A stretch of 64,000 nucleotides of DNA, taken from positions 11,219,250 to 11,283,249 of the forward strand of contig OZ022584.1 of the NCBI GenBank assembly GCA_963669155.1, written 5' to 3'. The position numbers were made by a program, and so were the translations under genes. Source of the DNA: Arbacia lixula. Its lineage: Eukaryota; Echinodermata; Echinoidea; Arbacioida; Arbaciidae. This document shows, piece after piece, positions 36,218 to 59,615 of the stretch (the stretch's first letter is position 1; every line of letters starts with the position of its first letter). The notes under the pieces are model-generated. The model was given only the letters and a program-made list of their open reading frames with translations. It was not told the origin of the DNA and ran no database searches.

Positions 36218-36222
36218 ACAAG

Positions 36223-36290: not shown

Positions 36291-36396
36291 AATTATCACA
36301 GTATGATTACATTCATTATGTAACCCTGATGATAAATATGACTTAATGTTAATATCAAAATATGCAAATAATAAGATGTAATAGTCAATGCATTAC

Positions 36397-36460: not shown

Positions 36461-37288
36461 CTGTGAAAATACAAATATAGTTGTACAACATATTAATGTA
36501 TTACTTAACACAAATTGCCATCATGTAAACACAACCATACTGTATTGCGCTTTTAACAACAATAGTAACCTCAATTCTGTTTAAAAGCAAATATTGTCCG
36601 GCAAGTAAATAAGGAGCTGCAGAATCATTTGATTGTATGAGGCAGCTAAAATAAAATACCTCCATAAAGAACTAACAAAAATCGTAATTGCAATCTTTGA
36701 AATTAGACCAGGAAAGTGCCAAATGTAAAAGTCTGAGAGTGTAGACTATGGATCGAGAACCATTGCAGCGATGTGATTGGCTGTTACGCTGAATGAATGG
36801 ATGGCACGTCGGCGCGCGTGTGTATTGTACGTTGATTCGACCCGATACACACGAATACACACATGCTTGTGTATAGCACAATAGGGCCACGTTCGCACAA
36901 TGTATGCGTCATAGAGCTATATATGGTATGCGGACAGAACAAGACTGGACTCAATCCAACGTATTCGATTTGGCGGGAAAATTGACGGCGCGCTCAGACC
37001 CTCACGTGGGGACGAACTCATAGGTTCATGCAAGGGCATTTGTTTTCGGCGAAAAATCTCAACCTAAATTCCATATCTTACCCGACAATTTATGATTATT
37101 GTGTGAATACATATGTTCATCAATTCAACATGAACAATGCATGTCATCAGTTCAAAGTCCAAAAGATATCTGAGATTATTGCGACCATTGCGTATTTAAG
37201 CAGACGACACTGTACATAGAGTTGTGTACAGAGCGAAAAGAATTTGGGGAACGAATCTGGCCTTTTCAACAAACATACTACTAAGAAT

Positions 37289-37361
37289 GCCCGGTTAGCT
37301 CAGTCGGTAGAGCATGGGACTCTTAATCCCAGGGTCGTGGGTTCGAGCCCCACATTGGGCG
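37289..37361 (+). tRNA. tRNA-Lys (anticodon CTT), second copy
   Basis: Base for base the same 73 nt as 19210-19282, with complete A and B boxes and anticodon CTT, but with unrelated flanks. A run of five T follows within a few bases (CACTTTTTG), a good Pol III terminator. Confidence 0.95.
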
Positions 37362-37953
37362 CACTTTTTGAAATTATTTGTCATGATGATCATTTTCATA
37401 TTCACAATTAAATATCTGCGAAAATTTATTTTGGTTTTTATCTTATTTCATTTGAAATCTAATTTTATCAAGGAAACCGTGATGTGAATTGTAAATGCAA
37501 ACTTTATTTCAACCCAGGCTACCCCTCATCTTATTTCTAATAATTTATAACTCTACATCAAAAAAATATTTTTGTTGTAGGTCCTACACTTGCCATCAAA
37601 CGATATTTGAATCAAACCAAGAGATACAATACCATACCGTAACTAATATGGACACGTGAGTGGGCTACAACGGACTTCAGCTTACTTTTAATTGTAATGC
37701 TACATTTTCGAATCAAATTAAAGTTACCCATCTTGTGTGTTTGCACGACGGTGCGTGCATAATAATCATTACTTAATATGAATTTGTAAATCATATCGTT
37801 TTTTTTTTATTGTGTTTAAAGTGATTTTTTTATAGATATCACATTGCAGTGCTCTATTTCTTGACTAAACAAAAATAGAAAAAATAGGAAGAAAAAAAAA
37901 ATAGGCATATATTCATAGAGCAAACGGAAGGCTTGATGTTATGTTACAAATAT

Positions 37954-38634
37954 GGGGGGTATTCCGAAAACGAACTTGGGAAAATTGTTATTGTATCTCA
38001 GGGACTTAGGAAAAATTTTATCTTTTGGTATTCCGAAAAGCCATCTTACAATAAAAGATAACAATTTTATTCAAATGAGCCAGAGATAAAAAACGAGCCT
38101 CCGAGATAAAAATTTTATGCAATTGAGCTAAATCGGTATTCTGAAACGTACTTAGGAAAAAAGTTAGAAAGAAAGATAAAACTGCTCCCAAGCAATTTTA
38201 TCTCCAGACGTACGCGCCTAGGCCCATAGCATTACGTGCAAAAATCTGTGGATTTTCGGAGGGGGGGGGGGGGGGTATTCCGAAAATCCACAGAGATAAA
38301 AATGTTATCTCCCCTAAGATACAATGTCCTTAAATTATTTACCTTTTAGTATTCCGAAAAGCCAACTTACAATGAAAAATATTTTTTTTTATTCAAATGA
38401 GCGAGAGATAAAATTTTTATGTAAATGAGCCTCCGAGATAAAATTTTGATGCAAATGATCTCAATCGGTATTCTGAAACGCACTTAGGAAAAAAAAGTTA
38501 GGATGAAAGATAAAACTGCTCCCAAGCTATTTTATCTCCAGACCTACGCGCAATAGACATGAAAGATAACATTTTTTCTAAGTCCCTGAGATACAATAAC
38601 ATTTTTCCTAAGTTCGTTTTCGGAATACCGCCCC
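37954..38634. repeat. Palindromic MITE with GGTATTCCGAAAACGAACTT ends
   Basis: The left end GGTATTCCGAAAACGAACTT is mirrored by AAGTTCGTTTTCGGAATACC at the right end. Internally a unit containing GGTATTCTGAAACG and AAAACTGCTCCCAAGC occurs twice, and a central G-run (38260-38275) separates the halves. Non-coding. Confidence 0.75.
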
Positions 38635-38671
38635 AGAATTTTAAGTAGGCCTATTGTTACAATAATTTTGT

Positions 38672-38672
38672 C

Positions 38673-38700
<28 letters not shown>
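38672..38700. repeat. (AT)n microsatellite
   Basis: About 14 TA units beside a prominin exon. Confidence 0.9.
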
Positions 38701-38703
<3 letters not shown>

Positions 38704-38722
38704 ATAGGTAACCATATCTCAC

Positions 38723-38806
38723 CGTCCGAACCAAGTCTCGGATGGTTGTTAGCGCAGACTGCATCTCGCTTCGCACAGTATCGAGGTCCAGTTGGTCCGT
38801 CTCGAG
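38723..38806 (-). CDS. prom: Prominin exon, first extracellular loop
   Basis: Twenty-eight residues (LETDQLDLDTVRSEMQSALT and TIRDLVRT). Acceptor TTTTGTTTCAG, donor ACG|GTGAGA, phase 0 to 0. Similar in place to the VDAELDNVNNVLRTDL segment of prominin-1. Confidence 0.75.
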
Positions 38807-39386
38807 CTGAAACAAAATAATAAAATCATTAATACAAATACTGAAATTGATATTGCCCAAAATTATATTGCGGAGGTATAATAAAAACAAGAAGAATTTT
38901 TAAAGAAATGGTTTCGTCTGGGAAATGTGTTTAATAAAAATTTTAGTTGTTCATGTGAAGTACGAATTTTGTCTATACGGGATAGCTTCCTTTGAAAAAA
39001 TATGCATGATTTATGCATGCTTGTAAATATCGAATTGTTTTGTTATTGAATTTCAAGGTAAAAAGTCCCTGAAGAGGAGAAAATTAATTATAGGCCTATA
39101 ATATTTAATTTTTTTTTTAATAAACTATGTTCGGCCGTGAACATGTATAAATAATATTTCTCAATGACATTTTTTATTTTCCGCATTTGAATAATGACAA
39201 TTCAAAACGTTTACTATTGTTTATATTCCACTTTGATATTTAAAAGGGCGGAATAGAGTGAAGAATAGCAAACCTCTACATAGTCTGAGCATGTTTCAAA
39301 CATAAATGGTGTTGGTGTTTGTTTGTTTGTTTGTTTGTTTGTTTTTTTATTAGAGGATGTTAGGATGGTCCCCTATGTTTCCTTAC

Positions 39387-39613
39387 CGTGCTCAAATCGA
39401 AACTGGTATCGAGAATGCTGGGATCGGGAATGGCATCACAGGCCCCAGCCGCATTACGAGGCCCGTCAGCGAGGCAATCGTCTCTTATTGTGGTCAATGT
39501 TCCCTTGGCCGTGCTTAAAACGCTTTCAAGCGACTGGCCAGCCGAGACTAAGTCGGCGGTCGTGTTGAGTACAATGTCTAGGGTCGATCCGTCTGCTGTC
39601 AGAGATGTTAGAC
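39387..39613 (-). CDS. prom: Prominin exon, first extracellular loop (5'-most supported)
   Basis: Seventy-five residues including STLDIVLNTTADLVSAGQSL and TIRDDCLADGPRNAAGACDA. The two cysteines and the helix before them align with [20 protein letters not shown]...SETCNSIR of prominin-1. Acceptor TTCCCGACAG, donor ACG|GTAAGG, phase 1 in, 0 out. A preceding exon ending in phase 1 must exist. Confidence 0.8.
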
Positions 39614-39634
39614 CTGTCGGGAAAGAGAAGAATA

Positions 39635-40530
39635 GTAATGAATTGCAAGGCATAAGCAGGAGAGAAAGTGAGAAGGGGAGATAAAAGAGAGGAAATAAAT
39701 AAAGAAAGAATACTGCCGTGTTTTATTTTGAAAGTTGAACACGATCCACATGTACATGTGGGACCTGCAACTCACCTTTTCTTCTTTTTCTGTCTCTTTT
39801 TCTGTCATTTACCAGCTTGTAATGAATCCTCACTCCCGGGCCTCACTCTCTCTCTCTCCCACCCAGCCCTATACCCTTTTATATCTTCATGTATGTTGTT
39901 TTTCCCCACTTTTCCCACCTTCTTTTGTAAATTTGCGTCTTCTCCCCACCATTTTCATTGATTTAGTTAACCATGTTAATATCTAAAGTTTTTTAGTTAT
40001 TTGTTTTAGTACTCAAGTGTCTTTGTGTTCTACCTAAAAAGATATTTATTGTATTCATGTTTGTACTACATGTATTAAATCAGACCGGTCGTTTTTAATA
40101 TGTTATTGCCATGACGGACCTGACTTTAACAAGCTATGCTTTCATAAGGTCTCCTCGTCTTTCTATCTTCTCTCTGATGCAACATTTAAACTTGTTCCAT
40201 TTTATACTGTTTCTTTATGTACAATGTCACTCGTTGTTAATCTGTAAAATTTTATCTGAAGAAAGACAAATAAACTTGAAATTTGAAACTTGAATAAAAC
40301 AGAGAGAACAGAGAAAGAACAACTAGGAATGAATAGCAAGGCATAAACAGGAGAGAAAGTAAGAAGCGATAAATGAGAGCAAATCAAAGAAAGAAAGAAA
40401 GAAAATAGAGAAAAACAGAGAGAAAGAACAAATAGGAATGAAAAGCAAGGCATTAACAGGAGAGAAAGTGAAAAGGAGAGAGTAAAGAGAGCAATTCAAA
40501 AAAGAAAGAAAGAAAGAAGACAATAGAGAT
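39635..40530. repeat. Purine-rich 110-bp units interrupted by a LINE end
   Basis: A unit with GAATGAATAGCAAGGCATAA and ACAGGAGAGAAAGT occurs at about 39640, 40325 and 40433. Between the first and second lies the LINE-like segment at 39735-40293. All overlapping open frames are simple-sequence artefacts. Confidence 0.65.
39735..40293 (+). mobile_element. Probable CR1/L2-type LINE 3' end
   Basis: T-rich non-coding sequence ending ATAAACTTGAAATTTGAAAC. Short TTGAAATTTGAAA-type tails without poly(A) are usual for CR1/L2 retrotransposon 3' ends. It interrupts a purine-rich repeat. No coding part remains. Confidence 0.5.
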
Positions 40531-41200
40531 ATACCCGGATGAACTTACGTTCAAGCCAGGATATTAAAAATATTAGCCTCATCCCACTCCTTGTTTCGTA
40601 CAGTGCAGTAACACTTTGCTATTTCTTCATTTTCTTTGTTCGTTACATTTGACTTTTTTCACAATGGGCCTAACACATACAATTCCAATTGAGCAACACA
40701 AAAGGTTATAGAATATTAGTATGAAATACAGTTTGGCATTCAGTGGTCTTGCCAATCAATGTTTGTTGATGTATGAAGACATTTTGCACGAGATACGAAT
40801 AGTATCCTGTTTTCTGACAGGATCTGCTGGCTGTTATGGGAGCTGCTGCTGCGTGATAAAATAACATAATGATAAACACATCTTCCAACATGGAAGAAAC
40901 ATAGTCATATATCTGTGTCAATGTTGTCCCGGAATGGGCAATAATTAGGCCTACAGACATCGTATGTAGTGGGCCTATAATTTGATACGATTTCTTTAAA
41001 ATCTGACTTTTTTTAACTGCTTTAAATATCGAAAGCTTTCTAAATCACAACACCAACTGGCTGACGGGGCAGGGAACATTGCAGGATGAAAAGCAATTTT
41101 TAATGTTTTCATTGGTTTTCTAAATTCATATATTTTTTTTAATCTGCCCATTTTCAACCAGTTCTCTCAGTGATCCTCATTTATCAATTTCAATTAAATG

Positions 41201-41202
<2 letters not shown>

Positions 41203-41236
<34 letters not shown>
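41203..41236. repeat. (AT)n microsatellite
   Basis: About 17 AT units. The flanking 40.6-42.1 kb is AT-rich and shows no confident exon. Confidence 0.9.
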
Positions 41237-41240
<4 letters not shown>

Positions 41241-42243
41241 ATCTTACTACAAAGCTCCATTTAGATAAAATTATTAAAAAGAAACAGTGATAAAATAATA
41301 ACATTAATATATCAAAGATTTTTAAAGATAATCATCATGTTCTTTTTGGTGAAAAAGAAAATGGATGGGTTCTGGGTTAGCTTTTTCATCTCTCACATTT
41401 TTTTGTTTTGTTTTGTTCTGCATATGTTTGTGTTTTGTGTGTTATTATGTTTTATATATAAAATCTTTATTCAGATGTATCTTTTAAGGCAAAAAAGAAA
41501 TGGCATGTATTTACGGTTTTTGATTATTTGTGTACGAATAGTTATGTAACAATGTACATTATTTTCATTCCTTTTTTATAATGATGTTTACTTCATTAGG
41601 TATAAGCACTTAATTATGTCATAAGTTTTGTACGGAAAACGAAGTCAAGATGTACATTATTTACATTACTTTAATATATTGATGATTGATGTATATTTAA
41701 GTATGTATAACTATTTTATTTACCATGTATGAGAAAATGTATTATTATTTTCTGAATGAAGGCTAAAAAGCATTTTAAAAAAAAATAACATGTGATCATT
41801 GATTTTCAGTGCAGCTTAGCTTATGCGGTTCTAGTCATAAGACTATCGCACGCATACAATAACTACCATATTAGGGCATGCCCTGTTTGAATGAACGAAT
41901 TCCTCACCAAAACTAGTAGACCGCGGGCCGAGGTGCTTTTTTCTTTCGTTTCGTGCCTCAAATCATGTATCTAGCCACAACTTACTCAACTTATGTAAAA
42001 AATAATTTTAAAATCATCTGTGAAACTCGTCAGAGACAAAACCTGCACATTAATTTAAAAAAATGAAAAAATCACACAAAACCTGCCAAGATTTTCTAGT
42101 TTCATCGGTGGAAAAAAACAATCACATTACCGCACTCATAGCGTGATTTGCGGACTGACTGGCTGATAACCAATCAGGGTCTTTGTTTCATACGCACGAA
42201 TTTTCGGTCAGCCACACTGCACGGGCACCATGAGCTGAGATTG

Positions 42244-42536
42244 ATGATGGCAACTTCATCTGATGATTCCAGCGCAACGGAGAGTTTCGAGCCCACCGAA
42301 TCCATTTTTTGTGCTATACATGTCACCAACAATAAGAGCAAAGTCACATCTTTTACTAATAAAAGTCATCAGAAGTGTAGAGAGTGTGCAGCTAAGTGGA
42401 TCGGCGTGGAAGACTGTGTAGAATGCACAGTTGCCGAGAAGTTTCTCGACCACTTACACAGAAGTGAAGGTGTGGGACCCGGACAAAGTATTCGTGAAGA
42501 TGCAGCTGCAGTTGACTTTACATCGAGAAGTGGCAG
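42244..42536 (+). CDS. Zinc-cluster / FEN-like nuclease gene, exon 1
   Basis: Begins ATGATGGCAACTTCATCTGA; either ATG may start translation (the nearest upstream ATG opens a 2-codon frame). It encodes about 97 residues: an acidic Ser-rich N-terminus, then a Cys/His cluster (H-Q-K-C-R-E-C...ED-C-V-E-C). The exon ends AG|GTAAGT in phase 2. I infer that it belongs to the 1505-codon exon at 49857 because the phases close through exon 2 and because Cys-cluster N-termini with a G-Y-H-x-x-C-Y motif precede such proteins in other invertebrates. No known name. Confidence 0.7.
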
Positions 42537-43049
42537 GTAAGTTTCATGAATTCTGATGATAGAGCTGATTTGTTATGAAAAAGAATGCTCCACATATTGC
42601 CCTAACTTTCCAAATTTTACTTCAATTACTTCCTGCACATGTAGTAGTACTACTAGTACTAATAGTAGTCTGACTGACAGTGAAGCATTTATGTCGACTT
42701 TATGACCATGCTGATGCAGGTCAGATTTTTGTACACTGAACACGATATTAACAAATATCTTTATTTCATGAGTTGATCAATTTTATTGTGAGGTGTCAGA
42801 CATTAAACGCATTGAATTTGTTGATTGCTCTTGTAGAGTGCTTTCTCATCGTCTCAAAAGTCTCTGAATGTCATGGTGTACATGTATGCACTGTGTGCAA
42901 TTTACGGTGCAGTGCTTCCAGTGTTTTTGTTTTGTTTAGATGGCTTCAAAAATATTTTGAGACACTGTATTAATAAATTTTCTATGGCTTACACTACTGT
43001 TGTATTTTTGAATGAATTTCTTATATGTTTGTACATGTTCTTTCACCAG

Positions 43050-43093
43050 GAATCACCAAACTGCTCTTGGGGGATACCATGCAGAGTGCTATC
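43050..43093 (+). pseudogene. Exon 2, left part, cut by gypsy insertion
   Basis: Acceptor TTCTTTCACCAG at 43049. Entered in phase 2 it encodes NHQTALGGYHAECY and then meets the 5' LTR, where the frame stops at a TGA within two codons. The final CTATC is the 5' copy of the target-site duplication. The remainder of the exon is at 48882-48946. Confidence 0.75.
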
Positions 43094-43327
43094 TGTGATG
43101 TATTGCTTTTGCATATGTCTCATGCATGCCTATATGAGACACCCGCTCAGGAATGCCACCACCAGATTTGTTTATGTAATCCTGCACCCTCACTGATAAG
43201 GACCGGAAAGCCCAACTGGCCAGTCCTAATAAAACCTCACTTCTGTCCCGTACACAGCTTGAGTAAGAGGTCCTCCTTGTCTCCTCTCCTCGTGTGTTTG
43301 ACTGATTGCATGTACGAGAATATCACA
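43094..43327 (+). repeat. 5' LTR (234 bp)
   Basis: TG...CA ends within the short inverted repeat TGTGAT/ATCACA. It contains an AATAAAA polyadenylation-like word at about 43229. Identical by eye to 48648-48881. Confidence 0.95.
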
Positions 43328-43344
43328 TGGTGTCAGAAGTCACG
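43328..43344 (+). promoter_or_regulatory. Primer-binding site (minus-strand priming)
   Basis: TGGTGTCAGAAGTCACG starts directly after the LTR; TGG matches the complement of a tRNA CCA end. The tRNA species cannot be assigned by eye. Confidence 0.8.
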
Positions 43345-43367
43345 AATCTTAATTCTGCTCAAGGAAA

Positions 43368-46300
43368 ATGGCAGGATTAAAGCCTCCAGGTCCATTAAGC
43401 TTCCAAGGAAATGTTGCTACCAATTGGAAGGACTGGTTAACGTCATACGAGCTGTATGAAACAGCTACTGAACTGCTGAAAAAAGGAGACGAGGTGCGGT
43501 ATGCCACGTTTCTTCATGTGGCGGGAGCCACAGCTCAACGCATAGCCAAGACGTTCGAATTCACGTCGGAAGAAAGCGGAAAAGTCAACGCCCTGAAAAA
43601 GAAGTTTGCTGCCTACTGCCAGCCGAGGAAAAACTTATCAGTTCTGCGATACATGTTCAATTCAAGGAACCAACGAGCCGATGAAAGTTTTAGCGCTTAC
43701 TTCACCGACTTAAAAGCACTGGCAGGAGACTGTGAATTCAAAACTCTCGAAGACGAGATGTTAAGAGACAGAATTGTATGTGGAATACATGAGCATGCAT
43801 TACGAGAGCAACTTCTACAAATCGAAAGCCTAAGTCTGCAGAAATGCATAGACACATGCACCATCAGAGAGAGCAGCGCCCAGCAAATGGAGCAGCTACG
43901 AAACGGCGCAGGAGCTGATATTCATTATATTAAAGAACGATCCCGACCACGACCACGACCAGACAGTACCCCAAACGACCGCAGCCGCAACGACCGCCCA
44001 TTCACATCCCAATCACATAACGCTGACAAGACCTGTGTGAATTGCACATATGTGCACCGTTGGCCAGACTATTGCCCTGCCGCAAAGGCAAGGTGCAGAA
44101 ACTGCGGGATGATGGGACATTTCGAAAAATCAACACGATGTCGGAGAAAGCATACCGTCACCAGCCAACCGACTCGACGAGACAACCGCAGAGATGATCT
44201 CCGAGGAGATCGTGGATACGACCGCCGATACGACCGCCGGAACGACCAGCGTGAAGTCAAGGACATTGGCGCAGACGACACGCAATACTCAGACGACGAC
44301 ACCGACCGAGCCAACGATGACGAGCATCGCCACGTATTCATCGACTTAGTGGTCGATAATGTGGACGCAATGGAGTGGACGAGACAATGTATGATTGATG
44401 GACTGAACGTCAAATTCAAATTGGACACGGGAGCCCAGGTCAACATTTTACCTGAGGAAATCTTCCACAAGACAAAACTGAGTTTGGATAAATCTAACAT
44501 TACTCTTCGATCATACTCAGGTCATGCAATGAAACCCCTAGGACAGACAAAGTGCAACGTGATGGTCGGTAAGTCTGAATATTTTCTCACTTTTCAAGTG
44601 GTTGGAGGTGGTGTAAAACCAATTCTTGGGATGAGAGCTTGTGAGCGCATGAAGTTGATAAAGAGATGCATGATTGATGACGTGGCAAACGCAGCACAGC
44701 AAAATGCGCCTCGCACAAGCGACCCCAAAATGGCGACGGCGAGGCCCCCACCCCAATCCCGAACCCCAATGTCTCGCGCAAGCGCAGAAAGCGCAGCTAA
44801 ACGCGACCCCACCGGGGGGATGAGCGATCCGCTAGATGCTCATGCTGATCTGTTCGCCGGTCTTGGCCGATTACGCAATCACGAGTACGATATATCCGTC
44901 AGAGATGACGTTGCACCCGTGAAGTGCCCGCCTCGTTCGATACCACACACATTGCGCGACAAAGTGAAAGCCGAACTCGAGCGCATGGAATCGATGGGGG
45001 TAATTGAGCGAGTAGATGGCCCCACCGACTGGGTAAGCGCGATGACTGTAGTCCACAAGCCGGATGGACGAGTCAGAATTTGCCTAGACCCCCGCGGGTT
45101 GAATACGGCAATCCGAAGAGAGCATTACCCAATGCCTACTTTCGAGCAAATTTCCGCACGCATGCCTAATGCTCGAGTATTCTCGAAATTCGATGCCACA
45201 AGTGGGTATTGGCAATTACCACTGACAAACAAAAGCTCATTTCTCACGACATTCAACACCCAGTTCGGCCGTTATCGATACAAGGTAATGCCATTCGGCA
45301 TCTCGTCGGCCAGCGAGATATGGCAACGCGCTATGATAGATGAGTTTGGCCAGCTGGAGGGTGTTGAAGTAGTCGCAGATGACATTCTGATATGGGGCGA
45401 AAATGTTACGCAACACGACGCCCGTCTGGCTGCTCTTCTTGATAAGGTCCGTTCGAGTGGCCTGAAACTGAACAAGTCAAAGTCAATCATCCGCGCGAGC
45501 GAACTCGAGTACGTAGGCCATGTAATCAGTAGCGATGGCGTAAAACCCAGCAATGACAGAATCGAAGCGATTTCAAAGCTACCATATCCAGAGTCTAGAA
45601 AGGAAGTTGAAACCTTCCTTGGAATGGTCACCTACCTGGGAAAATTCATCCCTAACCTATCAGATGTAACTTCACCCCTACGTGAACTGACGAAAAAAGA
45701 TGTTGCCTGGCACTGGGAGCCTGAGCACGCCCGCGCCGTAGATTCATTAAAGAACATGATCACATCTGCGCCTGTACTAAAACTCTATGATGCAACGAAG
45801 CCGGTTGCCCTAGCAACAGACGCATCCAATGCCGGATTTGGAGCCGTGCTCATGCAAGATAACAATCCGATCGCCTATGCTTCGCGACGAGTCAACGATG
45901 CCGAGAGCAACTATGCACCAATAGAAAAGGAGATGTGTGCCATACTATTCGCGTGTAATAGATTCCATGACTATGTGTACGGACAACGAGTAACGATACA
46001 CACCGATCACAAGCCGCTGATTGGCATAGCCGCAAAGCCGCTACACAAGTTAAGCCCTCGTCTACAGCGCATGCGCCTACATCTACTGGCTTACGACATC
46101 CAGCTCCACTGGAAGCCTGGGAAAGAGATGTTCGTACCGGACGCTTTAAGCCGCTTGCTGCCAGCGAGCACTCAGCGCGTGCAAACAGAGCCTCTTATCA
46201 AAGTAGAGATCGACACAGTCGAAAGCGCTATGCATATGTCCTCTCGCAGATTAGAGCAATTCAGGAAAGAGACTGAACGCGACCCTGTTCTCAGTAAGAT

Positions 46301-47552
46301 TCGCGCGTGCATACGCAGTGAATGGCCGGAAGATAAGAGAGAAATGCCGCATGAATTGAAGCCCTATCATTCATTTCGCGATGAACTGGTAGAAGTGGAT
46401 GGACTAATAATGAAGGACACGAGAATAGTAGTCCCCACAAGTCTACAAAAGGAAATGCTGAACATCCTCCATGAATCTCACATAGGGGTAGTCAAACTCA
46501 AAATGAGAGCCCGGAATATCTTCTTTTGGCCAGGAATGAATGCTCAAATCGAAGACAAAGTTGCACGGTGTGCAACCTGCCAAATAACTAGAAACAAACA
46601 GCAATCTGAGCCTCTCATCCCACATGAGATACCGGACAGACCATGGTCCAAATTGGGAATAGACATATTTCATCTTGATGGGATCAATTACCTGCTAGCT
46701 GTAGACTACTACTCCAAATTCCCCGAAGTCCAAGCCCTACAAGAAATGACAGCATATCATGTCATAAATGAGCTCAAAAATATGTTTGCCCGCAACGGAA
46801 GCCCCGACGAAATAATCACAGACAATGCCAGACAGTTTGCCTGTGCGGAATTCGAAACGTTCACACGGGAATGGGAAATCGAACACAAAACATCTAGCCC
46901 GATCTACCCACAAAGCAATGGGCAAGCAGAAAGACATGTTCAGACGGTGAAAACCCTCATGAAGCGAGCAAAGATGAGCAACTGCGACCCGATGTATGCT
47001 CTACTAGAGTATAGGAACACACCGATAGACGGCTTAGATGGGTATGCCCCTGCTCAACTTCTCAATGGACGGCTATTGAGGAGTCGTGTGCCCACCCCGC
47101 TAACCCTCCTCAAACCCCACATCGTGCCCCCCATGCACGACAACCTCGTGGCTCGGCAGAAACTACAGCAAAAACACTTCAATGCGAGAGCGCACCCCAC
47201 CCCCCTTTCCCCGCTGCCAACCAACCAAGAGGTAGTTTTTCGCGCCAATGCTAACTCGTGGAAAACCGGCCACGTTGCAAAGTCCGCCCATGCGCCCCGC
47301 AGCTACGTGGTAAGGAACGAGCAAGGCCGCGAATACAGACGAAATCGGAAAGACATCCGACCCATTCCTCCCCCACCCCCTCCCGCACCCCAGCCAGCCC
47401 CAGCGAACATCATGCGTGTCCCCGCTGCTGCGAACGCGCCACGTCACATTCGCTCTCAACCACAACGTTATCGCACAATCACGCTCTCTCAACCAACGAC
47501 CACTCGAAGTGGGAGAGTATCCAGCCCACCAAAACGTCTTGACTTGTCTTAA
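43368..47552 (+). CDS. Gag-Pol polyprotein of Ty3/gypsy retrotransposon
   Basis: One uninterrupted frame of 1394 codons, 24 bases after the primer-binding site. Gag: capsid-like region (residues about 1-160), Arg/Asp-rich linker and two zinc-knuckle-like Cys clusters (CVNC...C, CRNCGMMGHF...C; about 223-258). Pol: aspartic protease LDTGAQ (about 352); reverse transcriptase with RICLDPRGLN and the active-site variant VADD instead of YxDD (about 668-671); RNase H starting ATDASNAGFG (about 816); integrase with an HHCC zinc domain (H-x-x-x-H...CATC, about 1033-1065) and D-D-E core (GIDIF, ITDNARQF, SNGQAE). The C-terminus is Pro-rich. Gag and Pol share one frame, so no frameshift is needed. All catalytic motifs are present, so it may be active. 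Confidence 0.95.
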   Translation: MAGLKPPGPLSFQGNVATNWKDWLTSYELYETATELLKKGDEVRYATFLHVAGATAQRIAKTFEFTSEESGKVNALKKKFAAYCQPRKNLSVLRYMFNSRNQRADESFSAYFTDLKALAGDCEFKTLEDEMLRDRIVCGIHEHALREQLLQIESLSLQKCIDTCTIRESSAQQMEQLRNGAGADIHYIKERSRPRPRPDSTPNDRSRNDRPFTSQSHNADKTCVNCTYVHRWPDYCPAAKARCRNCGMMGHFEKSTRCRRKHTVTSQPTRRDNRRDDLRGDRGYDRRYDRRNDQREVKDIGADDTQYSDDDTDRANDDEHRHVFIDLVVDNVDAMEWTRQCMIDGLNVKFKLDTGAQVNILPEEIFHKTKLSLDKSNITLRSYSGHAMKPLGQTKCNVMVGKSEYFLTFQVVGGGVKPILGMRACERMKLIKRCMIDDVANAAQQNAPRTSDPKMATARPPPQSRTPMSRASAESAAKRDPTGGMSDPLDAHADLFAGLGRLRNHEYDISVRDDVAPVKCPPRSIPHTLRDKVKAELERMESMGVIERVDGPTDWVSAMTVVHKPDGRVRICLDPRGLNTAIRREHYPMPTFEQISARMPNARVFSKFDATSGYWQLPLTNKSSFLTTFNTQFGRYRYKVMPFGISSASEIWQRAMIDEFGQLEGVEVVADDILIWGENVTQHDARLAALLDKVRSSGLKLNKSKSIIRASELEYVGHVISSDGVKPSNDRIEAISKLPYPESRKEVETFLGMVTYLGKFIPNLSDVTSPLRELTKKDVAWHWEPEHARAVDSLKNMITSAPVLKLYDATKPVALATDASNAGFGAVLMQDNNPIAYASRRVNDAESNYAPIEKEMCAILFACNRFHDYVYGQRVTIHTDHKPLIGIAAKPLHKLSPRLQRMRLHLLAYDIQLHWKPGKEMFVPDALSRLLPASTQRVQTEPLIKVEIDTVESAMHMSSRRLEQFRKETERDPVLSKIRACIRSEWPEDKREMPHELKPYHSFRDELVEVDGLIMKDTRIVVPTSLQKEMLNILHESHIGVVKLKMRARNIFFWPGMNAQIEDKVARCATCQITRNKQQSEPLIPHEIPDRPWSKLGIDIFHLDGINYLLAVDYYSKFPEVQALQEMTAYHVINELKNMFARNGSPDEIITDNARQFACAEFETFTREWEIEHKTSSPIYPQSNGQAERHVQTVKTLMKRAKMSNCDPMYALLEYRNTPIDGLDGYAPAQLLNGRLLRSRVPTPLTLLKPHIVPPMHDNLVARQKLQQKHFNARAHPTPLSPLPTNQEVVFRANANSWKTGHVAKSAHAPRSYVVRNEQGREYRRNRKDIRPIPPPPPPAPQPAPANIMRVPAAANAPRHIRSQPQRYRTITLSQPTTTRSGRVSSPPKRLDLS

Positions 47553-48636
47553 TTAGCAAGTAATTGTAATGTAATTGTAATGTAATGCATTGTAATTAAT
47601 ACACACCCTATGGTTTTGTAAAATAGCTTATGACTGCAAGTATTCTGAAAAGAAACATCATACATTTTATTATTTGTTTACTTCCTATACTGACTTTTTA
47701 GCCCCTCCACTTTTCTATCTAATTTTAATTCCTATCTATTTTTCTAATTGTCTTAATCTCTGTTATTCATGAGTACACACAAATTACCTTGTGCTGATAA
47801 TGTTCACCTAATTGATGCATTGACTATCTACTATCATTAGACATTATACATATATATGTATGCCATTTTATTGTTTTCCTCTCACATTCTGGCCCATATT
47901 AAACAAACAAAACAAAAGCAACAAATAATAACAAGTTGTATCGATAATAATTCATGTACATGTAATATAAAATCCAGCAGATCACACATTTTGTGATATT
48001 TAATGCTGATAACTAATAATTATGTTATCATATTTCAACTATCACTCGCATTTATGATTTCTTCACAAAATATCATATGAAAACAAGTGACACACTGTGA
48101 AGATTGAATATCACTATCATTGATTAGCTGATTGATTGAAAGATGTAATGTATTATATATGATTAAATTTGTGCAATCGTATTTCAATGTATATAAATAT
48201 TGAGTGGAAAGACACCACAAACGAAAAAAAAATGAATAAAAGATGGTTAAAATATATCTGTATATTATGATGAAAGTGGAAAGAGAACCACAAACAAAAA
48301 CATGAAACTGATTATTTTGTAACGAAACTAAGCAAGAAGTAAGACATAAACCTGAATGCACTGAACAAGAAAACACTAGAAAAATTGCACCATTATGATC
48401 ATGAAGTTTTGGAAAATGCTTTGGCTTATTTGTTTGATATTAATGATCAAAATAATATGGTTTTGGAAAATGTCCATCGATTATGATTAATCGTTTCATT
48501 TATAACGTAGCAGTCACCTGTATTCATCCTATCACCTATGTAACATTGTAATAAATGTAATGACTAAAATAATGATTTTGTTAAGTCAGTTAAGACCTCC
48601 ATAATTAAGTTATGTCTCACAATAATTACTTCCATT
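47553..48636 (+). other. Gypsy element 3' non-coding region
   Basis: About 1.1 kb of AT-rich sequence between the pol stop and the polypurine tract, with short TGTAATGTAATTG repeats just after the stop. No envelope or other frame of note. Confidence 0.7.
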
Positions 48637-48647
48637 AAAGGGGAAGA
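48637..48647 (+). promoter_or_regulatory. Polypurine tract (plus-strand priming)
   Basis: AAAGGGGAAGA immediately before the 3' LTR. Confidence 0.85.
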
Positions 48648-48881
48648 TGTGATGTATTGCTTTTGCATATGTCTCATGCATGCCTATATGAGACACCCGC
48701 TCAGGAATGCCACCACCAGATTTGTTTATGTAATCCTGCACCCTCACTGATAAGGACCGGAAAGCCCAACTGGCCAGTCCTAATAAAACCTCACTTCTGT
48801 CCCGTACACAGCTTGAGTAAGAGGTCCTCCTTGTCTCCTCTCCTCGTGTGTTTGACTGATTGCATGTACGAGAATATCACA
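48648..48881 (+). repeat. 3' LTR (234 bp)
   Basis: Same length and, by eye, same sequence as the 5' LTR. Followed by target duplication CTATC. Confidence 0.95.
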
Positions 48882-48946
48882 CTATCGACACTTCTGCAAC
48901 ATAACCACGATCAGCAGGGCATTAGCAAGATTTCAGAAGAAGAAAG
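48882..48946 (+). pseudogene. Exon 2, right part, after gypsy insertion
   Basis: After discounting one CTATC copy, the frame from 43093 continues into a Cys/His-containing segment (H-F-C-N) and a basic helix ending Q-K-K-K, then donor AAAG|GTAATC in phase 1, exactly what the exon at 49857 needs. With the left part it forms a G-Y-H-x-x-C-Y-x-x-F motif resembling R-Y-H-K-S-C-Y-Y-H-Y in exon 3. Confidence 0.75.
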
Positions 48947-49856
48947 GTAATCATACAAAATAAGGCCCTTGTTAACTTGTCGAACTAGGCTGGCATTCAC
49001 ATTTATTTATTCCTTTCTATTTTTTTTAGGAAATATAGTCATATATATATATGTACATTTCCCGAATCAATGATGGAAGAAATGGAGGACTAAAGCAAAA
49101 AACCACGAAGAATTTATGTCAAGAAAAAACTGGCATGACCAAAAAGTGGGTCAACTCGTAAGAATGGAACGGGATTGCCGTGAACATGGGAAATCTACGA
49201 TCAGAAATGGACCTTTTTTCTCTCATTTGTTAGAGTTTTTCCTAATTCTTTGGTATACATGATGTGAAATATACATTTTTCGAACCATTTATGAAAGAAA
49301 ATCAGGTATAAAGCTAAACAATTGTGAGAATTCGTGAGTTGGTCATGGTGCGAGTTGGTCGTGGTGCGAGCTGACATGGAGTACAATTTGCATTACATGT
49401 AAATAGATGAATTTGTGTTCATGCAGATGAAAACAGCAGCAGGTGTACAGTTGTCCACCGTCTACAGATGCATTTTCCATCAGTCTCAAAAGAGAAAGTA
49501 ACTTGTAATCTATATTTGCTACAGTTTTGTAATTGGAGTTACATGTACCATAGCATCAATTCCAGTGATTTCTCTGTCTTTTCTTCTTCTTTTTTTTAGG
49601 GGGTGGAGGGGGGGGGGGGTGGGGAGAGGGTGTGGTGATTATTAAATGAAGGTGTATAAAAGCTACTAGTACATTACCGACAGTACCTTTGCCATGCATG
49701 TTGAGTTTCCTGTGTAAAATAAATAAAATAATGGTTTATTTTATACAAGAAATGACTTTTGGGAAATTAGTTTTATTCTGTGCTGTATTTTTACCCATGC
49801 TTTTTTTTTTCTTCATCTTTTTCTTCCTTTTCCTTTTCTGTTTGTAATTCCCTCAG

Positions 49857-52800
49857 ATGCTGAGAAGGACCAGTCATTGGCTCAGGAACCCCAGGAAGAG
49901 TCAACTGGTGAGGATGCCCCTCCACCCAAGAGACTGCTTCGGTCAAGCACCGCCGATCATCTGCATCGACCTTCTACCAGCCAGGACTTTGACAGGCCGC
50001 ATGTACTACCTGTTCAATGCATCATATGTAAAGGAACTAAGTATGTACGTGAGCAGTCTACTGCCAAACGAAAAGTAGAAAGATTAGTTCTGTCCGAAAG
50101 AAAAGATGGGGGGTATCTGTTAGATGCTGCTTTGTTAAAGCAAGATGAAAAGATGCTTCTAAACATACAGGGGAAAGATCTTGTTGCTATAGAAGTCAGG
50201 TACCATAAATCATGCTACTACCACTATACCAAAGTTGTGCGCGTGTCAAAAGCTAGCAAGCCTGATTCTCAACCAACCGCCATATATGAGAAGTCATACA
50301 CTAGTTTCTGCAAGAAGATCATTGAAGGCAGAATAATGAAAAACATGGAGATACTCCGCCTGACCAAACTCAACAAACTCTTCATTAAAGAAGTCAGAGA
50401 AGTTGAAGGATTGGATGCCTCCTCATTCAAGACCTACAGATTGAAAGCAAGACTGAAATCTTCTTACCCTGCTCTTTGCTTCGTTAGCCCCTCTAGAAAG
50501 GTGGAAAGTGACATTGTTTTCACTGAGAATCTGTCGGTGGAGGAAGTCGTAGAGGATGTGGTCAGAGACTTTACGAGTGAAGAGAGTGAGAGTAGCGAAC
50601 TTGAGAATGATGGCCATCCACATCAGGAGTTGTCCGGAGCTCATCATCTCCGAGATATGTTTCATGCTGCCCAGGTTGTGAAACAGAGCATCGTTACGGC
50701 ATCCAACCCAATTGAGTGGCCTCCCACTGCTGATGACTCGACTTTAGACAAAGCAGATGAAATTGTGCCTACGGAACTTTATAATTTCATTGCATGGACA
50801 ACGGGGGCAAGTTCCGATCCAAGAGCCTCCAGAAAGGTTGAGGTGCCTGATGAACTCCATCCCCGTATACTTTCAGTTGCCCAGGATATCATGTTCTTGA
50901 AAGCAAAAGGAAGGATCCTTCTTCCCAAACATTCCTCCCTCTCGATGGCAGTTCGTCACTTAACAGGATCTGCTAAGCTGATTGGTCTGCTGAATGGATT
51001 TGGCCATTGCTCTTCCAATTCTTTTGCTTTGGAACATGATACTGCATTGGCAAAGAGGCAGATTGAACAGGGCATTGACGCACTTCCATCTGGAAAAAGC
51101 AACACTTTCACAACTCTAGTGTGGGACAATAACGACTTTGGTGAGGAAACAGTTAGTGGGAAAGGAACCACCCACAATACTAATGGTATTCTCATACAGT
51201 TCCATCCATCTCCAACTTCAGAACCAACCTCACATTCATCAGATGGTGGACAAACGGGCAGAGACAGACGTCGCTCAGTGCCACCCCCTTCTCCAAACAT
51301 CAAGAAGTATTTTGGAAGCAAGAGGATTGGGCCTACGGCTTGTGGAGAAAGTGTAGATCTTCAGGAAAGACGGTGTCGAGCAGTCCAAATCCTGCCCAGA
51401 AAGCTTGATCTAGCTCTTCGTGTGATGAAATTGGGGGATACATCAGAACAAATTTTCCCCGGCTGGACGGGCTGCAACACCTTACTACAGACCCAAGTTC
51501 CAGGAATGAGCAGCGTCACGTACCTTCCCATCATCGATGCAAGTCCAACTGAATATGATACAGTGTATACGATTCTTGAGAGATCTTTGCAATATGCAGA
51601 TAACCTGAAGCAAGAAGAGGTAGCTGTCGTGTTTGACCAAGCCATTTATGCGAAAGCCCAGCAAATCAGGTGGAATAATGAGAGATTCTCTAAGCGAATA
51701 GTCATTCGCCTTGGTGCATTTCACACGTCCATGGCCATGCTATCCTGCATTGGCAAACGCTTCAGGGATGCAGGACTGGAGACTTTGGTTGTAGAATCAG
51801 GGATCATTGCCTTAGGATCTTTGAATGGGGTAATGAATGGCCACCATTACAACAGAAGCATCCGTGTTCACAAATGTGTAGCAGAGGCAATGGAGCGCCT
51901 GAGGTGGCAGAGCTTCCTTGACTCATTGTCAGAAGTCGAGAGACTGCAGGCTCAAGAGGTAGTGAATCAGTTGAGTTCAGCTTTTCCTGAAGAGGCATTC
52001 GTAGAACTTGCAACATCCAATGAGTTTGACAAAATTGTTTCATTGTATGATGACTTTGTGACTCATCAGGGGGAGAAGTATCCTACTTTCCGTGTATGGT
52101 CATCTTACATAGAAATGGTTCAAGTGATGCTTCTTTTCATTCGAGCGACCAGAGAGGGAAATTGGAACTTGCATCTGTCTGCAGTGAGGTCATTTCTGCC
52201 ATGGCTCTTTGCATACAATCATATCAATTACGCTCGTTACCTACCTGCCTACTGGCTTGAAATGTGTCAACTCTCCTCAACCCATCCAGCAGTCCATGAA
52301 GAATTCATGAAGGGCCACTTTGCAGTTCAGAGGCAGACTGATCATGGATTTTCAAAGGTAGCATGTGACCAAACGATTGAACAAACATGCAATCGAGACA
52401 CCAAAACAAAGGGAGGCATGGTTGGTTTCACTACACAGAAAGGGGCAGTGTCCAGATGGATCTTGTCACAACCAGAAAGAGCAGCAATTACAAAGAGTTG
52501 TGAGGAAATGGCTGGCAAGACTGAGAGGACAAGCTCCCGCAAGGATTTGGAACAATCTCGCATTCAGAGGGATGAAGAGAGTGTTTGCAATGTGAAAGCA
52601 GTACTTGAAGCAATGATCAATCCATTTGAAGAGACCGATGATACTTTGCTTCATATATCATCTGGCGCTGTGGCATCAAAGGACATTTGTGATGATTATC
52701 TCAGTGCGAGAGAGAGGGGAGATACAGCCTTCATGCAATATAGCAAGGAACGTCTTCAAGGCGAGGATGATATGTTCAAGACACTCAAATTAGTCAGAGT

Positions 52801-54394
52801 CAAGACCTTCCAGTCTATGAATAAGACTTCTCGATCGAAAGTGAAAGGAAAGGAAATGGTATTGAAGGCTGACAGAAATCTCTTCCAAAGGCTTGTCATC
52901 ATCGGAAATGTTCGTCAGCTTGATATCCACCACATGCTGACATACAACTTGGGTCCCCTGCCCCTTTCGATTGCTAATCCGGATGGATCACTAGCCAAGA
53001 CAGCCAAATCAACATTGCTCCATTGCATTGAAACTCACGTACAGCCATCTCCACAAGCTGATATTCTGCCAGGGAGCGTTTGGATTATTGATGGTATGGC
53101 GATGATACAAGAAATGTCCCCCAAAAGTATTCCATCAACATTTGGGAAATTGGCTGAATTCCTTCTCAGACAATTAGTCGAGCTGGCTCTCAGTGTGCGC
53201 AGCGATGTTATCCACTTTGTAGTTGATACCTACAGGAAAGAAAGTATCAAGAATGCTGAAAGAGGAAGACGCTCAACCAGTGGAAGTGTCATCACCAGAA
53301 TCTTCAGCAAAGAACAGCAGGTACCACATCAGTGGAAGAAGTTCCTTGCGTGTGGGGAAAATAAGTCAGAGCTGATCAGATTTCTCTTTCAGACATGGAG
53401 CAAATTGCCATCTAGCATTCTGAAGAATGTCACCGTGTTTGCTGCTCATGATTCGGAGTGCCATGAATTAACAAGAGAGGACGAGCAGATAAATGCTCGC
53501 TTGGTACCAGAATTAGCTTGCAACCATGAAGAAGCTGATACCAGACTCTTTCTTCATTGCAGCTATGCTGCTATACACCAGCCCTCATGCTCTTCAGGCC
53601 CACGCCCTGTCCTCATCAAGAGTCCAGACACTGACGTTTTCATCATTGGCATTGCTATGGCAGCACAAATTGAAGCAGAAGTGCTTTTTCACACAGGAAG
53701 AGGCAATAGTAGAAGAACTTTGAGCCTGTCAAAGATAAGTCAGCATCTAGGGCCGGAAGTAAGCAGAGCTTTGATACCCTTCCATTGTTTCACAGGTTGT
53801 GATACAGTAAGCTCATTTCATGGAAAGTCGAAATCCAAAGCTTTCAAGCTGCTTGTGAGTGACAGTGAAACTCATGCCGTGTTTCATGAGATTGGAACTT
53901 CATTTGTTGTCACTGATGAGTTAATCAGAAATGCAGAGAAGTTTGTGTGCAAGTTGTATGGGCAAACCTGTGATGCAGTAAATGAAGCTAGATATAAGCT
54001 ATTCATGTTAACGAAATCAGAAATGCAACTTCTTCCCACAGCAGATGCTCTCAAAAAGCACCTAATGAGGGCAAACTATCAAGCTGCTATTCATCTGAAA
54101 TGCCTTGAACAGTTCCCAGAATGTCCTAGTCCAAATGGTCATGGGTGGAAGCTCATGGACAATGAGCTAACTATTGACTGGGGTGATTTACCCCCAGCTC
54201 CCAGCAGCTTGCTGGAATTGACAAACTGCTCATGTAAGAAAACTAGCTGTGAGAAATCAGCTTCTGGGAAAGGACGTTGCTCATGTCAGCAGCATGGTGT
54301 TCCATGTACAGAGTTATGTAGATGTGCCAACTGCAAAAATTCAATCTCTGCACAGGATCCTGAATCAGATGAAGAAGATTCAGATGGGGAGTAA
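49857..54394 (+). CDS. Large Cys-cluster / FEN1-like nuclease / CXC protein, main exon
   Basis: Entered after acceptor TTCCCTCAG in phase 1, this exon encodes about 1512 residues with no intron. Numbered from 49877: a Cys/His cluster (CIIC-x-GTK...RYHKSCYYHY, about 52-114); a long region with no recognised domain; a nuclease-like region about 1065-1330 with acidic residues spaced as in FEN1/XPG enzymes (IIDGMAM D1072; VVDTYRK D1117 followed by ERGRR; NHEEADTR 1218-1221; SPDTDVFIIG D1251 and D1253; FTGCDTVSSF D1309); and a CXC (tesmin/TSO1-type) cluster (CSCKKTSC...CSCQQHGVPC...CRCANC, about 1451-1486); acidic end. Similar large uncharacterised proteins are multicopy in marine invertebrates. 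Nuclease function is inference. The upstream exon is broken here, so this allele is probably not expressed whole. Confidence 0.8.
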
Positions 54395-54538
54395 GAGTAG
54401 TGGAAGTGGGGAGTAAGAGTAGCGGAAGTGAAAATTCATATATTAAATGAGTCATCCTTTTTTTTTTATTGAAATATGATTCGGTTTTCAATATTTTGAT
54501 CATAGCATGCTTCTTTATGAAGTTATAGCAAAAATTAA

Positions 54539-54544
54539 AATAAA
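54539..54544 (+). terminator. Candidate polyadenylation signal of the nuclease-like gene
   Basis: AATAAA 145 bases after the stop codon, followed by mixed sequence. Good spacing for a short 3' UTR. Confidence 0.5.
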
Positions 54545-54923
54545 GACATACATGGGAAGAAACTTGTGTAACTACATGTAATGACACTTTTCTCAAAATC
54601 ATAAACGCACCAACTTTTCACTTTTACATGTCTTTTACGGTCTATTCAGTATGAAACAGCTGGTATTCACAATGCAATTTTGGTCCTTTCTCATTACTCT
54701 AATTTACCTTAAATGCAATTCCTCTGTAAATAAGGGCAATTTTGTTTTGTTTATAAATGTCTCTTATAAAGTTCTTGTAAGTCACTGTTAGCTCATATTA
54801 TTCTCATGTGCAGTGCTACAAGAAGCAAAAATGAAGTTTTGCTTCTGCATACATGTATGTATGGGGAGAGTTCTAAAAAACAATTTACCAAACTGGAAAC
54901 AAAGGAAGCTTTTAACACTACAT

Positions 54924-55470
54924 TTAAAGATTGTCCGTCCCTTTTGCAAGCTTAAAATTTGAAATCGTCTATCACGATCGTAAATTTAAGAAAGTGTGAT
55001 TCAAGATCATTTCTAAGAATATAGCAGGTTGAAGCTTTCTGTATATGTAAAAAATTTCAGCCGTTAAATTCAAACCGACTTTTTTCGTACTACGAAAAAA
55101 GTATTAGTCTTTGTTACAGTATCTATGTGGTTATTATGCATGTGTGAAATCCTCATTTTATGAGTAACTACCAAACTTTTGAGATGATTCCTTCCATAGA
55201 ACAATTTTTTTCATAATGCGTTTTTTAATTTGATAAACAGATTAATCAATAAAGCACATATTTCAACAAAAACTGCTAAGAGCCTGAGGTAAAGACTATT
55301 AATCAGACGTTGTTTACGTGCATTATTTGAATGTTACACTACATGTACGTATCAGTTTCACATTATTAATATACATTGTGAATATAGAGCTTGCTAACAC
55401 TTCCCTATATGTTTTGCCAATGTTTCGATGGTTTTGTGGTGATCTGAAAAAGGGACTAGCTGTCTTTCAA
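54924..55470 (+). repeat. TTAA-type MITE, full copy in reverse orientation
   Basis: TTAAAGATTGTCCGTCCC at the left and GGGACTAGCTGTCTTTCAA at the right; the body matches the reverse complement of 12762-13293. Its right edge is eroded. Confidence 0.75.
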
Positions 55471-55635
55471 ATTAGGTACTTAAGTAGCAATAAATATCAG
55501 TTATAAGCTGTGTCAGATTGAAAAAAAAAATCTTTTGTAATACACATCAAGCTAAGCTGCATGTTTTATCCTTTGGGTGAAAAGCAAACAAACTCATTAT
55601 GCTTTTTACTGCTTATTATGTATTACACGTATTTT

Positions 55636-55905: not shown

Positions 55906-58311
55906 AAGATCCATCAAGTTAGAACATGTGATTTGCAATAAACTGTTATTTATTTTAAAATAAAAAGGAAGAAGAAAAAACTTCATAACAGTCATGTAGG
56001 TTGCTATGTATCCAACCATTCTTATAACTAAAATTTTCACCACAAGCCTTTGTCTTCTTTAGTATTCACTTCACGCAATGTTTGGGTCTTCTTCGGTGTT
56101 CTGCATAACAATGAAGAAGAGCGAAGGTTGAGGCAGAAAGTTGTAATAACTAAAAAAAAAAAATGACTGTTTTGAAGATTTTTCTTCTTGTTTAAATGAG
56201 TTATAGGCTCGACATATTTTACCGCAAGTTATTTTGACCCTGTCTCTCATTTAATAAAATGAGAATAGATACACCTGTATTGGCAAAGTGAGATACATGT
56301 ACATGTACATCTGTGCAATTCAACAATGATTGTTTAATAGAATATTGTACACCTACATTCAGTGTTACATTATGAAGCAGACCATTATAGTTTATGTTTT
56401 CATGTAACAACATGCAAAGTTTTAAATCTTAACAGTGAAGAATTACAAAAATGTGTATGTGTACAGGTAAATACATGTATATTTCATTTTCATGCTATCA
56501 AACTGTATGTTGTTTTGTAGATATGTTTACTGTGGAAATTCTATCTGAGCAAATGGCTCTGAATCAGTTTCATGAGATTTGATTGTGGAGTAAGCACTTA
56601 ACAATGCAATTACTTTTCTTGTAGAATGAAGGAAGAACAGATGTTGCCCAATTTGACTACAGTATGTACAATTTCACGGAGAAAAAAAATATGTACTCTC
56701 AATATTCATTTTCACATTCCTCGTGAGCCATTACAGTATGTCTAATTGTAAGTTATGAAAGGCAAATGTACAATGAAGAGAAAATGTGTATTATGTGCTG
56801 TAAAGAAATTACGTTATCTTTTATGTGTGTTCATTGCAGAAATTCTACCTCTAGAAAGGAGACTGATATCACTTCACAAATACAGAATCGTATGGTTCTA
56901 TGGGGCTTTTAAAAAGCTTTGTGAGATGCACTTGTAATATTCCACATTTATCTCATGATTATTGCAATAGTGATGACTATTTTCTTTTCTTCCCAACAGT
57001 GAGTCTACTTCACACTATGCATAACTTCAACTACTTCGTATTCCCTTATACCGAAAGTTCCAGTGTACAGCAGTGTATCTTACATATGAAAGACAATAAC
57101 TGGTAACTGAATGTGAAATTTCTGTCTTCTGACAACCGATTGAAAGATAGCCATGTCAATCACTTTGGTGTGAAAATTAAAAGCATTGTCTGGATGAACT
57201 GTATATCTTTTGTAATGTATTTATACACTGTATAATTCATTCCTGATTGTGTGTGTGATGTTGCATGTTTGTGACAGTGAGAGTAGGAGGATGGGCCTTC
57301 AGTTCCTGTGTGTAGTCATTCTTAAAAATGAAATGAAATCCTGAAACTTTAAAGACCAAGCCACTTAAATTGACACCATCATAACACATCAAATGAAAAA
57401 GACAAAAACAAAGACTTCCACACTAACTGATACATGCATCAAAAGTGCACAGATGAGATGATAGAAAAGGCCTATGGCAACATAAGGTATGTAGACAGTC
57501 ATTGTACCCTTTGGCACAAAACACCGAGTGTGTGTGTGTGTGGGTGGATGTATCAGTGTGTGTTTTGTTTTTCGGGGGGGGGGGGGGGGCTGGGGTGTAA
57601 TTGCTGAGATGCTAAGTTGTTACACGGCCTGGATACAGGTCTTATAAAACCATATAAATGGGCACAAATTGGTTCACCCACAACAAATTCTCTTTATTCA
57701 CTTATCATTAGTTGGGGGCGGGGGGGGGGGGGGGGGGGGAATGGGGGGGATGTAAATCGAATGAAAGTCCATCCTGAAGTTAGAGTTCATGTGGAAAGGA
57801 AAACAAAGAGGGTACATGTATCCAGGATACGTTATCAACATGTTTTTGTCAATGATTAATCATAAAATCAAGAAATTCATAGCTTTCATATTTACAATTT
57901 AATTAGGAATAAGAGTGTTAACCCTTTAAATTGTTAGTACACTGTACATTCCGTCCACGACAGTGCGGGAAACACACACGTACCTCTAAAGCAAGTCTTT
58001 TATGAAGTTTTATCTAACAGTAACCCATAGAGGCAGTACAGGTATAACAGCTTGAACACAAGAGGGCGCTGTAGATTTTAACATTTGAATAATTAATTAA
58101 TGTGCAACTTTTGACACTGACGAGTTATGAATTCATGATCAGTGATTTTTTCTTTAAAATGTGACAAAAATTCAGGTAGATACAAGAGTTGGGTCACGAA
58201 AATGACAAACGAGACACATATTCAATGTATGGCCCGCGGTCTATAGCGTAGTTTACAGACACACAAAGCTCGTCAGTCATTAATGCATTTAAAACTGCAA
58301 AAACTAGCTCC
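55906..58311. other. Intergenic region, no gene seen
   Basis: AT-rich sequence with ACATGTAC words, GT-runs and long G-runs (57575-57590, 57719-57740). None of the short frames has coding character. It may hold distal 3' sequence of neither flanking gene. Confidence 0.4.
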
Positions 58312-59206: not shown

Positions 59207-59229
59207 AACATCTTTAAAAACACCTTTAA

Positions 59230-59592: not shown

Positions 59593-59615
59593 AAAATAAT
59601 GCCCCCATTGTTCCA

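What the first reader, a model, noticed from the sequence alone, without database searches (positions are those of the whole stretch)
43050..48946. Gypsy retrotransposon splits a coding exon, and the host frame closes across it
Sequence shows CTATC on both sides of a complete LTR element. The left flank (acceptor at 43049) and right flank (donor at 48947), with one CTATC discounted, form one exon of 104 nt. Its phases fit the donor at 42536 and the acceptor at 49856, and its product has a Cys/His motif like one in the following exon. Reading instead into the LTR meets TGA within two codons. This looks like a recent knock-out, possibly polymorphic, of a host or host-like gene.
Basis: partly seen in the sequence, partly recalled or inferred. 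Interest (0 to 1): 0.75.

Follow-up and report, generated by a model that had tools for sequence, protein, structure and literature searches.

The report
Retrotransposon nested in another transposon's gene
A young Gypsy retrotransposon has landed in the transposase gene of a second mobile element, a large cut-and-paste DNA transposon, so what looked like a broken host gene is one genomic parasite interrupting another.

Summary
A complete Gypsy element (43094-48881) has two identical 234-nt LTRs and a CTATC target duplication, and it splits a 104-nt coding exon. With one CTATC discounted, the frame closes across three exons (42244-42536, 43050-43093 + 48887-48946, 49857-54394).

Relatives confirm the empty site. 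L031, another copy in the same genome, carries the 104-nt exon with a single CTATC. Two full-length relatives have the exon uninterrupted, and a sea urchin protein carries the same motif.

The interpretation needs correcting: the gene is not a host gene. It lies inside a DNA transposon, 41917-58243, with inverted repeats starting TAGACCGCGGGCC and a 3-bp TAG duplication. Three internally deleted copies have the same 13-nt ends, each with its own 3-bp duplication. The protein models as a DDE transposase core followed by a FEN1/EXO1/XPG-like nuclease. That fits the AcademX lineage, reported to make 3-4 bp duplications (PMC10045372, passages).

This is therefore a recent nested insertion, TE into TE. 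In one search this copy is the only full-length member of its subfamily found in the assembly. Polymorphism was not testable.

The parts
41914..41916 (.). 3-bp target site duplication of the DNA transposon, left (TAG)
   Evidence: five other elements in the genome also have 3-bp duplications (TAC, TTG, TTT, CTT, TGT)
41917..42076 (+). left terminal inverted repeat of the DNA transposon, starting TAGACCGCGGGCC (imperfect, gapped)
   Evidence: BLASTN of 41949-42073 against 58074-58201 (inverted) E 3e-9, 67% identity; gapped local alignment 41910-42076 / 58070-58254 score 50 against a maximum of 26 in 200 single-letter shuffles; 13-nt end shared by 3 deletion copies
42244..42536 (+). exon 1 of the transposase gene (293 nt, ends in phase 2)
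   Evidence: homologous exon 1 in L029, L030, L031 and in both full-length relatives
43050..43093 (+). left part of exon 2 (44 nt), ending in CTATC
   Evidence: empty-site alignment
43089..43093 (.). Gypsy target site duplication, left copy (CTATC)
43094..43327 (+). 5' LTR, 234 nt
   Evidence: 100% identical to the 3' LTR
43353..47552 (+). Gypsy gag-pol open frame (stop to stop; 43368-47549 was scanned in three pieces)
   Evidence: Pfam on three separate pieces: PF13975 protease, PF00078 RT, PF17917/PF17919 RNase H, PF17921 and PF00665 integrase above cut-off; PF15288 zinc knuckle and PF03732 Gag below cut-off
48648..48881 (+). 3' LTR, 234 nt
48882..48886 (.). Gypsy target site duplication, right copy (CTATC)
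48887..48946 (+). right part of exon 2 (60 nt), followed by donor GTAATC
49857..54394 (+). exon 3: DDE-type transposase core, FEN1/XPG-like nuclease, C-terminal CXC-like cysteine-rich segment (Pfam TCR, below cut-off)
50849..52864 (+). transposase core modelled; D (51125-51127), D (51635-51637) and E (52379-52381) are among the columns listed as invariant in the 38-sequence alignment; that they are the catalytic triad is inferred
52865..54391 (+). FEN1/EXO1/XPG-like nuclease domain with conserved acidic residues (EE.D, D.D, D), plus the cysteine-rich tail
58070..58243 (-). right terminal inverted repeat of the DNA transposon
58244..58246 (.). 3-bp target site duplication of the DNA transposon, right (TAG)

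Best explanation
The locus is a nested insertion. A DNA transposon (41917-58243; about 10.5 kb without the insert) inserted earlier, duplicating TAG. Its gene has three exons and encodes a DDE-type transposase with an added FEN1/XPG-type nuclease, most likely of the AcademX lineage. Later a Ty3/Gypsy retrotransposon integrated by its own integrase into exon 2, duplicating CTATC. Shown from sequence: the anatomy, the closing frame, the empty-site copies and both sets of target duplications. Inferred: a transcript from the transposase promoter now runs into LTR sequence and meets an in-frame TGA two codons in, so the full-length transposase is not made from this copy. Skipping exon 2 would shift the frame (phase 2 into phase 1). 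A product started at the first ATG in exon 3 (residue 99 of its 1511) could keep the catalytic domains but would lose the N-terminal Cys/His segments. Also inferred: deletion copies of this subfamily may have lost their in-trans source in this haplotype.
Confidence: 0.93

Rival explanations
1. The interrupted gene is a true host gene (or a domesticated transposase) knocked out by Gypsy.
For: Open 1644-codon frame with introns and purifying selection. Databases name relatives as predicted cellular genes, e.g. 'Tesmin/TSO1-like CXC domain-containing'.
Against: The gene sits inside TIRs with a 3-bp duplication. Three internally deleted copies with the same 13-nt ends lie on other contigs (C20, C10, C15) with different duplications. 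Two full-length relatives at 62% and 56% amino-acid identity have their own TIRs and duplications. A domesticated gene would not be expected to keep these.
Confidence: 0.04
2. The gene still works: the Gypsy insert is spliced out or bypassed (cryptic splice sites, an LTR-driven transcript starting inside exon 3, or exon skipping), giving a shortened but active transposase.
For: Exon 3 alone carries both catalytic domains and is fully open. At least one annotated relative's model begins in the exon 3 part (P0006: its residue 5 aligns with residue 156 of the joined frame).
Against: Exon skipping shifts the frame (phase 2 to phase 1). The N-terminal Cys/His segments would be lost. There is no expression evidence either way.
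Confidence: 0.12
3. The insertion is fixed and old rather than recent.
For: None found; the LTRs are short, so 0 of 234 differences still allows roughly 1% divergence (3/234, a rule-of-three estimate made here).
Against: Identical LTRs, perfect duplication, intact gag-pol frame.
Confidence: 0.1

Closest known systems
AcademX lineage of Academ DNA transposons (passages of PMC10045372; the primary paper, Kojima 2020, is not held)
   Same: Nuclease-bearing element with a DDE-type core and 3-bp target duplications (AcademX reported at 3 or 4 bp); 3-bp duplications in 6 of 6 elements here; FEN1/XPG-like nuclease fold.
   Different: No direct sequence comparison with a named Academ element was possible. 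The native length of about 10.5 kb exceeds the 5565-bp mean that PMC10294476 reports for curated Academ elements of bivalves (passage).
Ty3/Gypsy LTR retrotransposons
   Same: LTR-PR-RT-RNaseH-IN-LTR order, TG..CA ends, 5-bp duplication, PBS-like and purine tracts.
   Different: Nothing unusual seen. The clade within Gypsy was not determined.
P-element / ISCth4 (IS256 family, recalled) / hAT Hermes / RAG1 DDE transposases
   Same: Closest solved folds to the middle domain.
   Different: Sequence identity of these rows is 5-12% only. The nuclease that follows was found by a separate search with its own model.

Membership tests
Ty3/Gypsy LTR retrotransposon | Two LTRs with TG..CA ends and a short target duplication | tested here: met
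   234/234 identical, CTATC duplicated
Ty3/Gypsy LTR retrotransposon | Domain order PR-RT-RNaseH-IN (integrase last) | tested here: met
   three consecutive pieces
Ty3/Gypsy LTR retrotransposon | RT phylogenetic placement among Gypsy clades | not tested
   no tree was built
AcademX DNA transposon | Terminal inverted repeats with 3-4 bp target duplications | tested here: met
   6 of 6 elements have 3 bp (four labelled by the script; F62 read from its printed flanks, F56 read by eye from the printed end sequences, where the script's alignment ran past the ends)
AcademX DNA transposon | DDE transposase | tested here: inconclusive
AcademX DNA transposon | Encodes a nuclease (XPG-type, recalled) rather than a helicase | tested here: met
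   XRN/EXO1/FEN1/XPG matches; Pfam at E <= 1 lists only the CXC domain in exon 3, no helicase
AcademX DNA transposon | Sequence homology to a named Academ transposase | not testable with these tools
   no Repbase library; the Kojima 2020 paper is not held
Host (cellular) gene | Not bounded by transposon termini; single locus | tested here: not met

The most novel reading that the evidence does not exclude
In this haplotype a Gypsy insertion hit the only full-length member of an AcademX-like subfamily (window copy 100%, next relative 62%). That would leave at least three deletion copies, with identical 13-nt termini, without their own transposase: one transposon family silenced by another, and possibly still segregating in the population. 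The transposase family (DDE-type core joined to a FEN-type nuclease, called DUF6589/CXC host proteins in databases) may also be wider than the Academ elements so far described.
Probability: 0.3. Interest if true: 0.45.

Novelty: new member of a known kind. Interest (0 to 1): 0.3.

Why it matters
Nested transposons are common, so the event itself is ordinary. It is useful for two reasons. It shows that a large intron-bearing gene whose relatives are annotated as 'Tesmin/TSO1-like CXC domain' or DUF6589 host proteins belongs, in the elements examined here, to DNA transposons. It also gives a clean, testable case of one element disabling what may be the last source copy of another.

Tried and rejected
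Host gene: rejected once the TIRs, the 3-bp duplications and the deletion copies were found. Pfam gave only a sub-threshold CXC match for exon 3 and nothing for exon 1, and a PDB sequence search of exon 3 gave nothing, so folds were used instead. No match to exon 3 in the phage collection. The inverted-repeat search in the repeat finder did not show the TIRs among the 25 longest of its 162 pairs; they appeared only when the two gene flanks were compared directly. A reading of the transposon ends as TA duplications with GACC termini is also consistent with the copies, because the TIR itself begins TA; it was set aside because it leaves the further matching 3-bp flanks (TAG, TAC, TTG, TTT) unexplained. 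Copy number of the TIR and of the LTR in the genome was wanted but did not complete: the genome search was busy in 27 tries; only searches were answered. Eight paper searches: DUF6589 with transposon (0 papers); AcademX or XPG nuclease (58 papers, AcademX in none of the 15 listed); Academ with XPG (1 paper, not relevant); Gypsy and SURL in sea urchin (listing only); AcademH (7 papers, 5 listed); Academ with DDE transposase (2 papers, listing only); Academ with Novosib, Kolobok (12 listed); nested elements in echinoderms (listing only). Passages, not whole papers, were seen of PMC10045372, PMC9587614, PMC10294476 and PMC10799480.

Full report
The observation. The element at 43094-48881 is a complete LTR retrotransposon. 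Its two 234-nt LTRs are identical, start TGTGAT and end ATCACA, and are flanked by CTATC at 43089-43093 and 48882-48886. A PBS-like sequence follows the first LTR, and a purine tract precedes the second (read; the labels are from recall). Three consecutive pieces of its single long frame matched a retropepsin-type aspartic protease, reverse transcriptase, RNase H and integrase in Ty3/Gypsy order; the Gag match (E 0.02) and the zinc-knuckle match were below their cut-offs.

The split exon. The left flank has an acceptor ending at 43049 and the right flank a donor starting at 48947. With one CTATC discounted they make 104 nt. Exon 1 from the ATG at 42244 to 42536 is 293 nt (phase 2), exon 1+2 is 397 nt (phase 1), and the long exon at 49857-54394 needs exactly one upstream nucleotide. 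The joined frame has 1644 codons and then a stop, with no internal stop. Reading straight into the LTR gives one codon (L) and then TGA.

Independent support for the empty site. Nineteen residues that span the insertion point match residues 107-125 of the S. purpuratus protein XP_011676157.1 at 79% identity. In the same genome, L031 carries the exon with a single CTATC and the same 104-nt length. L029 and L030 carry it with 8-nt and 14-nt insertions; the one in L030 is at or beside the bases where Gypsy landed. Two full-length relatives, F62 (L032+L033) and F56 (L034+L035), carry an uninterrupted exon 2 (GYHAECYRHFCNITEINRA and GYHPDCYRHYCNVTTIKRA). In-frame splice models with the window's phases (2 and 1) and exon 2 lengths of 101 and 110 nt exist for them; the script found 31 and 20 possible in-frame combinations, so these are the models that fit the window, not the only ones.

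The interrupted gene is a transposon gene. Comparing the flanks of the gene (36000-42243 against 54395-64000) showed one inverted match with E below 1: 41949-42073 against 58074-58201, BLASTN E 3e-9, 67% identity. A gapped local alignment extends it to 41910-42076 / 58070-58254, score 50 against at most 26 in 200 single-letter shuffles. A search of the window's own 607-Mb genome with exon 3 gave 31 scored matches (of 168 candidates). Only the window copy is full length at 100%; the next long ones are 62%, 56%, 48% (partial, one stop) and 30% (one stop). Three shorter matches at 88-99% proved to be internally deleted copies, L029, L030 and L031. All three have TAGACCGCGGGCC at the left end and GGCCCGCGGTCTA at the right end, and their alignment to the window stops within 5 bp of these. 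The target duplications are TAG (window), TAC (L029), TTG (L030), TTT (L031), CTT (F62) and TGT (F56): 6 of 6 are 3 bp (four labelled by the script, F62 read from its printed flanks, F56 read by eye from the printed ends). The window element is 16,327 bp, of which 5,793 bp are the Gypsy element and one CTATC.

Name. PMC10045372 (passages only) says that AcademX elements make 3- or 4-bp duplications and AcademH elements 9- or 10-bp ones, and relates this to the nuclease or helicase they carry. The element here has the nuclease and the 3-bp duplication, and Pfam lists no helicase in exon 3, so AcademX is the best name. This is a match of features, not a sequence test.

Mechanism and age. Shown: the order of events (DNA transposon first, Gypsy second) and the intact structure of Gypsy. 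Inferred: loss of the full-length transposase from this copy, because the frame ends in the LTR and skipping exon 2 breaks the frame. A protein started within exon 3 could keep both catalytic domains, so complete loss of activity is not proved. Identical LTRs and an open gag-pol frame point to a recent insertion; polymorphism is untested.

Verdict. A well-described and correct observation. The interpretation changes from host gene knock-out to a nested TE insertion. The event is ordinary in kind. The added interest is that the disrupted copy is the only full-length member of its subfamily found, and that this widely annotated 'CXC domain' gene family belongs to transposons in the six elements examined.

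Noticed in passing
48997-49336: A 340-bp stretch of intron 2 lies in the opposite orientation in all three deletion copies (L029, L030, L031). In L031 it is bordered by inverted repeats of about 34 bp, so the window copy looks inverted by recombination, with loss of about 500 bp relative to L031.
   Followed up: partly
L030 3616-3780 and L029 3903-4064: Small insertions in exon 2 look like footprints of excised elements: 14 nt with a repeated TGCTAT at or beside the bases where Gypsy sits in the window, and 8 nt with a repeated CATAAC.
   Followed up: no
42244-42536: Exon 1 of the window copy lacks a stretch of about 27 nt that all three deletion copies carry; the window frame stays open without it.
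   Followed up: no
G000 C6, C2, C7, C8, C13, C14, C20 (L025-L028 and others): Eight matches at 27% identity with nearly equal scores and open frames of 1589-1818 aa suggest a second, recently multiplied family related to residues 732-1333; the copies were not compared with each other.
   Followed up: no
19210-19282 and 37289-37361: Two tRNA-Lys genes (CTT) with the same score, and a tRNA called selenocysteine (TCA) at 23647-23718.
   Followed up: no
databases: Some relatives of this transposase are named as cellular 'Tesmin/TSO1-like CXC domain' proteins or carry DUF6589; these look like transposon genes annotated as host genes.
   Followed up: partly
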